Shown: positions 7,365-22,522 of the stretch, one piece after another | Numbering within the stretch: position 1 is the stretch's first letter | How the letters are laid out: every line of letters begins with the position of its first letter | Virus record (IMG/VR): IMGVR_UViG_3300025138_000404 | Span: 1-22,522 of that record | DNA: 22,522 bases | Reading direction: 5' to 3' (one strand) | From: a virus | Made by a program: the position numbers and the translations under genes | Notes under the pieces: model-generated | Seen by the model: only the letters and a program-made list of their open reading frames with translations | What the model was told of the DNA's origin: nothing | The model's database searches: none

Positions 7365-7462
7365 CTTTTTCTCCTTTCTCTGTCAAGTCACTTGCCGCAA
7401 CTCGATAACCTATTGTACTATAGCAGCTCGCTTTTGCGAAACCCTCAGAAAGGAGAATGCAG
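7365..7462. promoter_or_regulatory. divergent promoter region between helicase and replication operons
   Basis: This gap separates oppositely directed operons. On the plus strand, TTGCCG (7392-7397) and TACTAT (7416-7421) are 18 nt apart. On the minus strand, TACAAT occupies 7417-7412, with a weaker TTCGCA (7440-7435) 17 nt upstream. The two -10-like boxes overlap, so the two directions may compete. The minus leader contains TTGACAGAGAAAGGAG, also found before the gene at 20637-20894. Promoter calls are from consensus matching only. Confidence 0.45.
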
Positions 7463-15385: not shown

Positions 15386-15605
15386 AGAATTCGAGAAAGT
15401 CATGCTTTATTTTTATGACGAAATTCAAGCTACTATCGAACGGCTAGAGGAAGAGAAGGGGGCCTCGCGAGCAGAGCTTATGTGCGTCTTAGGCAATATG
15501 CTCGCCGAGGCCGCTAGGGACGCAGGAGTGACTAAAGAGAAATTCCTGCAAACTATGGAGGTTACCTGGATGCAGGATTCAGACGAGCCCCCGTCCTTGC
15601 ACTAA
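15372..15605 (+). CDS. small hypothetical helical protein starting with TTG
   Basis: A 77-residue protein. The TTG at 15372 is chosen because GGAG lies 7 nt upstream and it gives the natural N-terminus MKTFEEFEKVML; the next ATG is ten codons in and lacks a ribosome binding site. It is mostly helical and acidic (EIQATIERLEEEKGASRAEL). The last gene of the plus-strand run, it overlaps the preceding gene by 14 nt. Its stop overlaps the convergent hydrolase stop by 4 nt. Family unknown. Confidence 0.6.
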   Translation: MKTFEEFEKVMLYFYDEIQATIERLEEEKGASRAELMCVLGNMLAEAARDAGVTKEKFLQTMEVTWMQDSDEPPSLH

Positions 15606-16021
15606 TCCCATCCTGACCACTGCCCCTCGTCCTTGCCCCGATAGAAGATGTGATCCCCTATAACCCTGGTAGGCACTAGCGTCACGGCCCACGCCGGTTG
15701 TACATAGCTTGCATGGTAGTGGGTGGCATACCCAGTAGCATCTTTAAGGTGTCCGTTCAATGCGCTCCAGGCCAAGGACTTCGCTACGAAGAATGCAGGC
15801 TCATCTGTAGGTCGATCTGACTTCCCATCGCAGTAGAAACTGAACGCACACTTGTGTCTGTACTCCCCTCCTGCGGTTATAACGCCGCAAACGGTAGACG
15901 GATAGCTAGAACTGGCTCGCCGCTCAAGGATCACCTGAGCGACCGCTGCCTGCCCCTCCAGCGACTGATCACGCGCCTCGAAGTAAATCGCTGTGGCTAA
16001 ACACAGCAAGGGGCTAATCAT
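15602..16021 (-). CDS. cell wall hydrolase, SleB/Hydrolase_2 family (probable endolysin)
   Basis: A 139-residue enzyme containing the family pattern. LATAIYFEARDQSLEGQAAVAQVILER (split here only for reading) runs from about residue 8 to 34 with E15 as the expected catalytic Glu. YPSTVCGVI (40-48), CAFSFYCDG (58-66) and ATHYHASYVQPAW (99-111) follow, then GDHIFYRG (122-129). SleB-type enzymes cleave peptidoglycan glycan strands; in phages the domain serves as endolysin or virion hydrolase. I chose ATG 16021 (AAGGA 8 nt upstream, 8-nt overlap with the preceding gene) over an in-frame TTG ten codons earlier. No signal peptide or membrane anchor is visible, so a holin would be needed; none was recognised nearby. 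It is the last gene of the minus-strand array. Confidence 0.85.
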   Translation of the reverse strand: MISPLLCLATAIYFEARDQSLEGQAAVAQVILERRASSSYPSTVCGVITAGGEYRHKCAFSFYCDGKSDRPTDEPAFFVAKSLAWSALNGHLKDATGYATHYHASYVQPAWAVTLVPTRVIGDHIFYRGKDEGQWSGWD

Positions 16022-16190
16022 CTGCCCGGTCCTTAGCCGCCTCAATTTCAATCATTAAGTCTTCCGCGATCTCCACACAGCTCACCGCCAGGTGGCCCGA
16101 ACCCTTTTCGCCCAGGGCTCCGTTAGTGATCAGAGCATGCATCGCTAACGCACTAAATAAGTTCAGTTGTGCTATCTCGTCATCGTTCAT
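16014..16190 (-). CDS. small hypothetical protein (58 residues) upstream of the hydrolase
   Basis: The start ATG at 16190 has AAAGAAAGGAG 7 nt upstream and overlaps the preceding stop as ATGA. The protein begins MNDDEIAQLNLFSALAMHAL and contains a helix VSCVEIAEDLMIEIEAAKD. One moderately hydrophobic stretch (LFSALAMHALI) is too short and interrupted for a confident membrane helix. Its position just before the hydrolase invites a lysis-partner idea, but nothing supports holin function. From memory, a similar short pattern appears in phage accessory genes without function. Confidence 0.6.
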   Translation of the reverse strand: MNDDEIAQLNLFSALAMHALITNGALGEKGSGHLAVSCVEIAEDLMIEIEAAKDRADD

Positions 16191-17048: not shown

Positions 17049-17318
17049 TCAGTCTTCTTTCTCCGCTACAAAACCCCAATCAAAAGGCCACGCCTGGTTA
17101 TCCAGGGCTGCTGCCACAACCTCTTCCTGGGAGTACTCGTACAGCGCCGACATGAACTCTTCTCGCGCCTGGTCTTGTGTCTCCGCGCCATCTACCCACC
17201 ATTCATCTTTCTCATGCTCCCAGGCCTCTTCTTTCGAGGCATGGGAAGAGAGGTTATAGATCTGTCCTCCAGCTACTAAAATTAATGTATTCAACGGGCA
17301 CTTGGCGGTTAGTTTCAT
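17049..17318 (-). CDS. small hypothetical protein (89 residues)
   Basis: It starts with a one-base overlap on the upstream stop (TAATG). The sequence is acidic and aromatic (KEEAWEHEKDEWWVDGAE, WPFDWGFVAEKED). The N-terminus MKLTAKCPLNTLILVAGGQI is mildly hydrophobic but too short for a confident membrane segment. No family recognised. It ends 62 nt before the next gene, one of the larger gaps in this array. Confidence 0.6.
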   Translation of the reverse strand: MKLTAKCPLNTLILVAGGQIYNLSSHASKEEAWEHEKDEWWVDGAETQDQAREEFMSALYEYSQEEVVAAALDNQAWPFDWGFVAEKED

Positions 17319-17758
17319 TACGCCACCTCTCTTTGGTTACTTTCATAAGCTTCGCAGAGCGTATCCAGGAGCCGGTCCTTGAGGGACCGCACAACATGAG
17401 AGGCGTCAGACTTGTAGTAGTCTGGGTGCTCGCACGACTGATATTCGTAGCTGCCTAGCACGCGCTTGATATGAGCTGGGTTAAAGTGGCCCTGCAGACG
17501 TCGAGCTTTCTGCGAGACTTCTGCTAGAAAGTCAGTGACTGTCTGGCCCTGCGACAGGAAACCGCCGGCAGGCTTACCAGGATAGCGGTGCTCTAAAGAC
17601 TTGATGTTCTCCTGAGCAAGCAGCACGGCTAGAGCAGGGGCGTCCTCGACTTCGATTTCTAGCCTGCTATCAAGGTTGTAGTAATGGGGACGCATTGATT
17701 TAAAAGCATATTGAGCGATCACTGCGAAATCATTTGAATCTACTAAGTAAGCTGACAT
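17318..17758 (-). CDS. conserved hypothetical phage protein (146 residues)
   Basis: The start follows AGAAAGGAG in good position. The protein has a compact, mostly helical appearance with VTDFLAEVSQKARRL and an aromatic segment YEYQSCEHPDYYKSDA near residues 104-119. From memory, a Y-x-YQSCEHP-like motif recurs in cellulophage and marine-phage accessory proteins without a known function. The single motif with Cys and His might hold a metal but has too few ligands to argue. It follows a stable hairpin (17779-17794) and is coupled to the downstream gene. Confidence 0.65.
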   Translation of the reverse strand: MSAYLVDSNDFAVIAQYAFKSMRPHYYNLDSRLEIEVEDAPALAVLLAQENIKSLEHRYPGKPAGGFLSQGQTVTDFLAEVSQKARRLQGHFNPAHIKRVLGSYEYQSCEHPDYYKSDASHVVRSLKDRLLDTLCEAYESNQREVA

Positions 17759-18087: not shown

Positions 18088-18153
18088 CTCCTTTCTGGTT
18101 AATTTGTCCGACACAGATATTATATACTACTGAGCCCCGCGCACAACTACTTT
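18088..18153 (-). promoter_or_regulatory. promoter-leader repeat P1 (sigma70-like)
   Basis: Read on the minus strand this has AAAGTAGTTGTGCGCG, with TTGTGC as -35 (18146-18141) and TATAAT as -10 (18124-18119) separated by 16 nt. A leader then ends in CCAGAAAGGAG. The whole 66-base unit is repeated at 19754-19819 (P2), with the core AAAGTAGTTG also at 21450-21464 (P3). It drives the gene at 17802-18080. A perfect -10 and the repetition make it a good promoter candidate for host RNA polymerase. Confidence 0.72.
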
Positions 18154-18800: not shown

Positions 18801-18996
18801 CTACTTTCTCCTTTCTGGTTAAACTTTCTAGTGATTGCTCAAAGAGTTTCCTTACACCGGCAGCTTCAATTGAGAGCGACCCAATATCCACTACCGCACA
18901 GCTTTACGGGCTGCCTTAGAGGGGGGAACGCTTTCATCAAGTCCGCTATTTACCCGTCTCCAACGATGTAAGAAAACTTTTTCAACAACCTCCTTT

Positions 18997-19523: not shown

Positions 19524-19745
19524 TTAGAATTGGCTTAACTTATCATCTAGCTCTTCTTTTGATGAGCAGTAGCGTTCACCTTCAAACACAGAATCGTCGC
19601 CTCCGTCGATCCAATAACCGATGTCTCTTCCAATGCGATCTATCTCGATAGAAAGTCCCAATTTCGCAGCTTTGCGTCGAAGTTTGGTTAGCGGTATTTG
19701 CTTGCTCTGAGTTAGAGCGTTGTTTAACAATGTTGTCAGTTTCAT
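19524..19745 (-). CDS. small hypothetical protein (73 residues)
   Basis: The ATG at 19745 has AGAAAGGAG in the leader of repeat P2; longer readings into that leader are not needed. The product begins MKLTTLLNNALTQSKQIPLT, then a basic helix (KLRRKAAKLGLSIEIDR), GYWIDGGDDSVFEG and an acidic C-terminal helix. The middle could be a small helix-sheet unit. No family recognised. As the first gene behind P2 it is probably expressed strongly early. Confidence 0.64.
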   Translation of the reverse strand: MKLTTLLNNALTQSKQIPLTKLRRKAAKLGLSIEIDRIGRDIGYWIDGGDDSVFEGERYCSSKEELDDKLSQF

Positions 19746-19753
19746 CTTGCTGT

Positions 19754-19819
19754 CTCCTTTCTGGTTAATTTGTCCAACACAGATATTGTACACTACTGAA
19801 AGCTACGCGCAACTACTTT
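19754..19819 (-). promoter_or_regulatory. promoter-leader repeat P2 (sigma70-like)
   Basis: On the minus strand AAAGTAGTTGCGCG contains the -35-like TTGCGC (19812-19807). TACAAT is the -10 (19790-19785), again 16 nt away. The leader GGACAAATTAACCAGAAAGG is identical to P1. Out of 66 bases, the unit differs from P1 at three single positions and an 11-base block beside the -35. It reads into the gene at 19524-19745. Its start lies one base inside the stop of the HD hydrolase gene, so it would serve genes downstream of it. Confidence 0.7.
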
Positions 19820-20241
19820 TATGCAATTAATGTCGCAACAGCCTTTTTATATCTCTTGACCAACGTGTCAGGGATCGCGCCTGGCGTAGCAAGATGATCG
19901 GCCAGGTCCGCAAGCTTCACGAGCCTTGCCGTCTTGTCGCCGGCCTTAATGCCATCGATGTACGCCGCATACGTCACGCCCGTTGGCCGTGTCAGCATGC
20001 CTACCGCGTCAGCCACAGCGTCACCAAAGTCTTTCCTGATGACATCCAGGCCGACGTCTGTGTCCTCAACGACGTCGTGCAGGTAGGCGGTAGCCACGGC
20101 TACCGGATCTGTTGTCTTGGCTCTTACCCGGTCGGCAACGACAGCAAGGTGGTAGGTGTAGTAATCCTTACCCGCTTTATCGACATGGCCTTTATGTGCT
20201 CGCTTGGCAAGAGCCGCGGCCCTCGCTACTAATGTTTTCAT
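19819..20241 (-). CDS. single-domain HD hydrolase, SpoT/MESH1-like (possible alarmone hydrolase)
   Basis: A 140-residue protein that is almost wholly an HD domain of the RelA/SpoT type. AHKGHVDKAGKDYYTYHLAV lies at about 15-34 with H31. LHDVVEDTD lies at 54-62 with H55, D56 and the E59-D60 pair. FGDAVADAVGMLT lies at 72-84 and VKLADLADH at 108-116 with D112. These match the metal-binding and catalytic positions of MESH1-type (p)ppGpp hydrolases; the usual Asn in the last motif appears as His116. At 140 residues it is shorter than MESH1 (about 180), and there is no synthetase domain. Alarmone hydrolysis would relieve host stringent response or block toxic small alarmone synthetases; another nucleotide substrate is possible. 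AGAAAGGAG precedes the ATG. Confidence 0.8.
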   Translation of the reverse strand: MKTLVARAAALAKRAHKGHVDKAGKDYYTYHLAVVADRVRAKTTDPVAVATAYLHDVVEDTDVGLDVIRKDFGDAVADAVGMLTRPTGVTYAAYIDGIKAGDKTARLVKLADLADHLATPGAIPDTLVKRYKKAVATLIA

Positions 20242-20259
20242 CGCTACTCTCCTTTCTGA

Positions 20260-22256: not shown

Positions 22257-22522
22257 GCAAAAGAATGCGTGAAATTTTCAATTCAGTTCCGATAAAAAAG
22301 ACCAGGCGGCAAATACTTATGCAAAAGTTGAAGGATGCGGACGTGGCGCCGCTAGATGAACAGAAAGGGGTTGTCACGCCTCAACAGTGGCGCTTCATCA
22401 AGGAGCTCTGTGATGAGGAGGGTAAAATTACGCTGCGCCAGGCGGCTATCAATGCCGGCTACCCAAAAGAGCGCGCTCACATCATAGCCAATCAACTTAC
22501 CGCGCCACAGCAGTACCCGCAG
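22253..22522 (+). CDS. terS: probable terminase small subunit, 3' truncated by the window
   Basis: The ATG overlaps the preceding stop (ATGA) and the frame is open to the window end, giving 90 residues. The N-terminus is basic (KKTRRQILMQKLKD). A helical segment follows: TPQQWRFIKELCDEEGKI (42-59), then LRQAAINAGYPKERAHIIAN (61-80). The AA--AGY-----A pattern is typical of the DNA-binding helix-turn-helix of phage small terminase subunits, which recognise the packaging site and hand DNA to the large subunit. The large subunit should follow just beyond the window, and the repeats upstream would suit a pac site. Moderately confident because only the N-terminal part is visible. Confidence 0.7.
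   Translation, partial: MSKRMREIFNSVPIKKTRRQILMQKLKDADVAPLDEQKGVVTPQQWRFIKELCDEEGKITLRQAAINAGYPKERAHIIANQLTAPQQYPQ

What the first reader, a model, noticed from the sequence alone, without database searches (positions are those of the whole stretch)
19819..20241. Phage-encoded single-domain SpoT/MESH1-like HD hydrolase
The protein keeps H31, H55-D56, the catalytic E59-D60 pair and D112 of (p)ppGpp hydrolases, in a compact 140-residue form without a synthetase. It could counter the stringent response or neutralise host small alarmone synthetase toxins, as known small alarmone hydrolase antitoxins do. The expected Asn in the last motif is His116, which may alter substrate choice.
Basis: partly seen in the sequence, partly recalled or inferred. 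Interest (0 to 1): 0.7.

Follow-up and report, generated by a model that had tools for sequence, protein, structure and literature searches.

The report
Phage small alarmone hydrolase, His-for-Asn variant
A phage carries a small enzyme of the known SpoT/MESH1 family that probably strips the 3'-pyrophosphate from bacterial alarm nucleotides; hundreds of phages have relatives, so it is an ordinary member of a known family, except that its small sub-lineage replaces a nearly invariant active-site asparagine with histidine.

Summary
Window 19819-20241 (minus strand) encodes a 140-residue protein with H31, H55-D56, E59-D60, K109 and D112, and His116 where Asn is expected. Pfam HD_4, PHROG 990 and a confident AlphaFold2 model (mean pLDDT 96.3) place it among small alarmone hydrolases (SAHs). 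Its best structural match is the Bacteroides caccae (p)ppApp hydrolase 7smg (Z 21.3, rmsd 1.5 over 133 residues), just ahead of Pseudomonas SAH and MESH1. Phage SAHs are already well known: 277 phage records hold relatives, and published work reports that phage PVP-SE1 and SSU5 SAHs neutralise toxSAS toxins. So this is a new member of a known kind, probably an active 3'-pyrophosphohydrolase. No toxin partner is in the window. It is an accessory gene: of 50 related phage contigs, only the closest that was searched has an SAH. The new detail is that His116 is not random: it recurs in divergent phage SAHs (51%, 44% and 37% identical) as D-H-L with Asp21, while 123 of 129 distinct phage SAHs keep Asn. 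In RelSeq the equivalent Asn touches substrate and Arg44, so altered substrate handling is testable but unproven.

The parts
19819..20241 (-). Small alarmone hydrolase gene, 140 aa; HD metal site H31, H55, D56, D112; E59-D60; K109; His116 in place of Asn; Asp21 in place of RelSeq Arg44
20249..20258 (-). Extended Shine-Dalgarno CAGAAAGGAG, 7 nt before the start codon, same as other genes of this phage

Best explanation
It is a catalytically competent, orphan, phage-encoded small alarmone hydrolase of the short type with Asp at the place of RelSeq Arg44. The HD site (H31, H55, D56, D112) holds Mn2+, E59-D60 help activate water, and the 3'-pyrophosphate of an adenosine or guanosine alarmone ((p)ppApp, (p)ppGpp), or of a 3'-pyrophosphorylated tRNA end, is removed. 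In the infected cell this would undo growth arrest caused by host alarmone synthetases or toxSAS-type defences. Shown here: gene, translation signal, predicted fold, intact metal site, family, absence of a RelA_SpoT synthetase domain in the contig, accessory distribution, and a conserved His116 sub-lineage. Inferred: activity, substrates, timing and role.
For: HD_4 and PHROG 990 matches; 7smg, a (p)ppApp hydrolase, is the best sequence and profile match and the best structural match (Z 21.3); model pLDDT 96.3; metal and catalytic residues invariant; PVP-SE1 SAH is 39% identical over 110 residues and is reported to relieve FaRel toxicity (PMC7644958); SSU5 SAH removes the FaRel2 tRNA modification (PMC11559606); Aph1 proteins of prophages hydrolyse (p)ppApp (PMC12226406); saturated dS with dN about 0.49 against L249 points to purifying selection.
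Against: No activity has been measured. His116 and His19 change two usually conserved positions, which might reduce activity or change the substrate. The substrate cannot be read from sequence: one paper says so outright for another phage SAH (PMC12846349). No host, infection timing or defence target is known.
Confidence: 0.75

Rival explanations
1. It mainly lowers host (p)ppGpp made by RelA/SpoT-type enzymes, keeping transcription and nucleotide supply high during infection, rather than acting against toxin-type synthetases.
For: The HD core is shared with SpoT/Rel hydrolases; SAHs often act on both guanosine and adenosine alarmones (PMC9765508, PMC7644958).
Against: The best structural and profile match is a (p)ppApp hydrolase, and Asp21 replaces Arg44, whose R44Q change abolishes RelSeq hydrolase activity (PMC13299517), although PVP-SE1 SAH also has Asp there.
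Confidence: 0.3
2. It is the immunity or antitoxin half of a toxin pair carried by the same phage (Aph1 beside MuF-Apk2, or ATfaRel beside FaRel).
For: Good phage matches by E-value include SAHs next to a MuF gene, e.g. Mannheimia phage 1152AP2, and Aph1 is known in that position (PMC12226406).
Against: No RelA_SpoT domain in the window or the sister contig. The neighbours are small genes without family matches. The full genome is not in hand, and divergent Apk2 domains may escape the PF04607 model.
Confidence: 0.07
3. It acts on another nucleotide, such as NADPH (as MESH1 does) or PAPS or an unlisted defence signal, with His116 contributing to the change.
For: MESH1 complexes with NADPH and PAPS are among the top folds. 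The Asn replaced by His116 lies at the 3' alpha-phosphate and base in RelSeq (PMC13299517), and His116 is conserved in a sub-lineage.
Against: A shared fold does not show substrate; all SAHs share it. Known short relatives act on alarmones.
Confidence: 0.15
4. It is a decayed or catalytically weak HD protein that has lost Asn116 and Gln19.
For: Both positions are usually conserved: Gln19 in 73/81 viral relatives, Asn116 in 79/81 viral and 79/80 genomic.
Against: All metal and catalytic residues are intact. His116 is kept in a relative with 51% identity and saturated synonymous sites, and the gene has a strong ribosome-binding site. Position 19 varies among homologues with intact sites.
Confidence: 0.08

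Closest known systems
(p)ppApp hydrolase of Bacteroides caccae, PDB 7smg (Aph1 type)
   Same: Single HD domain of about 140-150 aa, same metal site, Asp at the Arg44 position, Asp before the last-motif residue; best structural match, Z 21.3
   Different: 7smg has Asn where this protein has His116 and Gln where it has His19; about 31% identity in the structural alignment. Aph1 proteins sit beside a MuF-Apk2 toxin (PMC12226406); none is seen here
Salmonella phage PVP-SE1 SAH (identical DNA in SSE121)
   Same: Phage-encoded, single HD domain, Asp-Lys motif, 39% identity over 110 aa; reported to relieve FaRel toxicity (PMC7644958)
   Different: Asn at the His116 position, His at position 115; beside a gene annotated as thymidylate kinase in a 146-kb myovirus
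Salmonella phage SSU5 PaSpo SAH
   Same: Phage SAH that reverses toxSAS modification (PMC11559606, PMC9712102)
   Different: Sequence not compared here
MESH1 (PDB 5vxa, 3nr1, 9chy)
   Same: Same fold, Z about 19, same metal ligands
   Different: About 29% identity, longer (about 180 aa), metazoan NADPH/alarmone enzyme
RelSeq / SpoT HD domain
   Same: Same HD catalytic core (1vj7 Z 15.5; profile E 2.9e-31)
   Different: Long enzymes with further domains, Arg44 and Asn148; here Asp21 and His116, no synthetase or regulatory domain
Pseudomonas phage Adele SAH (PaAdele_032)
   Same: Recently described phage SAH with proposed alarmone or counter-defence role (PMC12846349)
   Different: Different phage type; sequence not compared here; its substrate is also unknown

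Membership tests
Small alarmone hydrolase (SAH, RSH superfamily) | Single HD_4-type hydrolase domain without a synthetase domain | tested here: met
   Pfam HD_4 E=1.2e-9 over residues 8-89; 140 aa; no PF04607 in the record
Small alarmone hydrolase (SAH, RSH superfamily) | Metal site His, His-Asp, Asp and the Glu-Asp catalytic pair | tested here: met
   H31, H55-D56, E59-D60, D112 present and invariant in relatives
Small alarmone hydrolase (SAH, RSH superfamily) | Fold of SAH structures | tested here: met
   pLDDT 96.3; 7smg Z 21.3, Pseudomonas SAH Z 20.0, MESH1 Z 19.4
Small alarmone hydrolase (SAH, RSH superfamily) | Asn four residues after the last metal Asp (RelSeq Asn148) | tested here: not met
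   His116 here; Asn in 123 of 129 distinct phage SAHs. Near-invariant rather than strictly defining: His recurs in four other divergent lineages that keep the metal site
Small alarmone hydrolase (SAH, RSH superfamily) | Hydrolysis of (p)ppGpp or (p)ppApp | not testable with these tools
   needs purified enzyme
Aph1 (p)ppApp hydrolase, immunity of MuF-Apk2 toxins | Sequence and fold relation to 7smg | tested here: met
Aph1 (p)ppApp hydrolase, immunity of MuF-Apk2 toxins | Encoded beside a MuF-Apk2 toxin | tested here: inconclusive
   None in the window: no PF04607 match, neighbours without family matches; the phage genome is incomplete
Aph1 (p)ppApp hydrolase, immunity of MuF-Apk2 toxins | Residues said to set (p)ppApp specificity | not tested
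   The paper that defines them (Ahmad 2023) is not held
toxSAS antitoxin (ATfaRel type) | Encoded beside a toxSAS gene | tested here: not met
   No RelA_SpoT domain (PF04607) in the window or in its 17.35-kb sister contig; it may still neutralise such toxins in trans

The most novel reading that the evidence does not exclude
The D-H-L phage SAHs are a functional sub-lineage in which the Arg44-Asn148 pair of RSH hydrolases is replaced by Asp21-His116, moving the enzyme to a different preferred 3'-pyrophosphorylated substrate (for example tRNA 3'-pyrophosphate or an unlisted defence nucleotide) and making it a dedicated counter-defence enzyme.
Probability: 0.12. Interest if true: 0.6.

Novelty: new member of a known kind. 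Interest (0 to 1): 0.28.

Why it matters
Phage alarmone hydrolases are common but few have been tested, and their natural role during infection is open. This is a compact, sporadically carried example with a conserved active-site change whose effect on substrate choice can be tested by single substitutions (H116N, D21R). If it protects phage from toxSAS-type defences it would add a counter-defence gene; if not, it is one more of a widespread family.

Tried and rejected
DNA-level match of the window to known phages: none. PADLOC: no match for the SAH. A RelA_SpoT synthetase domain in the window or in 35 other records (SAH-bearing phages and DSL-LC04): none; the control rang in 11 of 14 genomes, but the Mannheimia record with a MuF gene beside its SAH also gave no match, so Apk2-type domains may escape this model. 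Covariation of His19 with His116: rejected, since L249 has Asp19 and L003 and L297 have Gln19 with His116. Two fixed-spacing DNA patterns for His116 SAHs found only the sister contig and L086, because spacing varies; the alignment-based search did better. The careful tree did not finish; only the quick tree is used. The key papers on toxSAS (Jimmy 2020) and (p)ppApp hydrolases (Ahmad 2023) are not held, so their claims come through citing papers.

Full report
Observation. The ORF at 19819..20241 is on the minus strand, starts with ATG and encodes 140 residues. An extended Shine-Dalgarno, CAGAAAGGAG, lies at 20249-20258, 7 nt before the start. With one mismatch allowed the motif occurs 16 times in the window against 2.1 expected, mostly just before genes, so the gene carries the same translation signal as much of the rest of the phage.

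Where it is. The window is a 22,522-base virus record classed as linear. A second IMG/VR contig, 99.7% identical over 10.7 kb, encodes the identical protein. No DNA-level match exists in 50,697 phage records. The DNA polymerase is 68% identical to that of phage DSL-LC04, a 61.5-kb lake phage recorded with a gammaproteobacterial host, and the left part of the window, at least up to the helicase, aligns with it in the same gene order. DSL-LC04 has no detectable SAH in bases 1-45,000, and none is annotated in the remaining 16.5 kb. Among 50 viral contigs related by DNA polymerase, only the one with the closest polymerase (79%) carries an SAH. The gene is therefore an accessory of this phage group, with the caveat that many of these contigs are fragments.

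What it is. Pfam HD_4 (1.2e-9), PHROG 990 'metal-dependent phosphohydrolase' (6.4e-34) and a partial match to NCBIfam spoT_relA (3.2e-12, far below that model's full-length cut-off) agree. Among solved structures the best by sequence is 7smg, the Bacteroides caccae (p)ppApp hydrolase, then RelSeq; with a 69-row profile, 7smg reaches 1.4e-43. AlphaFold2 on 68 window and locus sequences gives mean pLDDT 96.3 and pTM 0.90. Foldseek puts MESH1 and 7smg at the top within a factor of two in E-value. VIA-align gives Z 21.3 (rmsd 1.5, 133 residues) for 7smg, 20.0 for Pseudomonas SAH, 19.4 for MESH1 and mostly about 14-17 for SpoT/Rel, while HD proteins of other families start at about 11.

Relatives. 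277 phage records hold a homologue and 178 viral-contig stretches encoded one in the first scan. In a quick tree (careful tree not finished) the protein pairs with L003 (support 97) on the side that holds PVP-SE1 SAH and 7smg, apart from the long RSH enzymes, though the deep forks are weakly resolved. It shares with 7smg, PVP-SE1 SAH and the Mannheimia phage 1152AP2 protein an Asp where RelSeq has Arg44. In the sampled genomic sequences Arg is typical of long enzymes and Asp of short ones.

His116. The aligned position is Asn in 79 of 81 viral and 79 of 80 genomic relatives (one gapped), and in 123 of 129 distinct phage sequences after a second search. His is found in this phage and its sister contig; in L249/L251, from the closest related phage that has an SAH (51% identity); in L003 (44%); in L297 (37%); and in the very divergent L086. 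All read D-H-L, and all but L086 keep Asp21. Between this protein and L249, dN is about 0.49 with dS saturated, and only 28 of 72 identical residues use the same codon: the protein, His116 included, appears to have been kept under selection. In RelSeq, Asn148 is reported to contact guanine N2, to face the 3' alpha-phosphate with its side chain, and to hydrogen-bond to ligand-bound Arg44 (PMC13299517). My inference is that an Asp21-His116 pair may stand in for Arg44-Asn148; no coordinates were available to measure this, and most Asp21 proteins keep Asn116, so Asp21 at most permits the change.

Mechanism. By homology the HD site binds Mn2+ and hydrolyses the 3'-pyrophosphate of an alarmone (inferred). 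Phage SAHs have experimental precedent: PVP-SE1 and SSU5 SAHs relieve FaRel toxicity (reported in PMC7644958), and SSU5 PaSpo removes the FaRel2 modification from tRNA and was used to express CapRel (PMC11559606, PMC9712102). Prophage Aph1 proteins hydrolyse (p)ppApp as immunity to MuF-Apk2 toxins (PMC12226406). A recent paper annotates an SAH in Pseudomonas phage Adele and proposes similar roles (PMC12846349). No RelA_SpoT domain is in the window or sister contig, so this is an orphan as far as can be seen. I think it most likely that the enzyme is active on (p)ppApp-like and (p)ppGpp-like substrates and relieves alarmone- or toxSAS-based arrest. The role is not shown.

Verdict. It is a new member of a known, widespread kind. 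The one detail that merits a specialist's attention is the small, conserved His116 sub-lineage.

Noticed in passing
window, e.g. 20249-20258, 19754-19763, 18808-18817, 18088-18097 (minus) and 7446-7455 (plus): A conserved extended leader, (TTAAC)CAGAAAGGAG, stands 6-8 nt before many start codons of this phage: 16 sites with up to one mismatch against 2.1 expected. It could help call the true starts of the small genes, e.g. MKLT... for the gene at 19524.
   Followed up: partly
   Followed up: partly
window 17318-17758; L249:1920-2357: The homologue of this 146-aa gene of unknown function lies directly upstream of the SAH in the closest related phage, but 2 kb downstream of it here, so the small-gene region is shuffled between the two phages.
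   Followed up: no
window 22494-22522: The sister contig IMGVR_UViG_3300001450_000597 ends at window position 22494, only 28 bases before the window ends; this may mark a genome end or a shared assembly break.
   Followed up: no
window 15602-16051, minus: Cell wall hydrolase (PF07486, E=8e-23; PHROG 938 endolysin), probably the endolysin.
   Followed up: no
L082:2968-3381 (Mannheimia phage vB_MhS_1152AP2): The SAH homologue annotated as hypothetical protein lies two genes after a MuF head morphogenesis gene, the layout described for apk2-iapK-aph1, so it is probably an unannotated Aph1.
   Followed up: no
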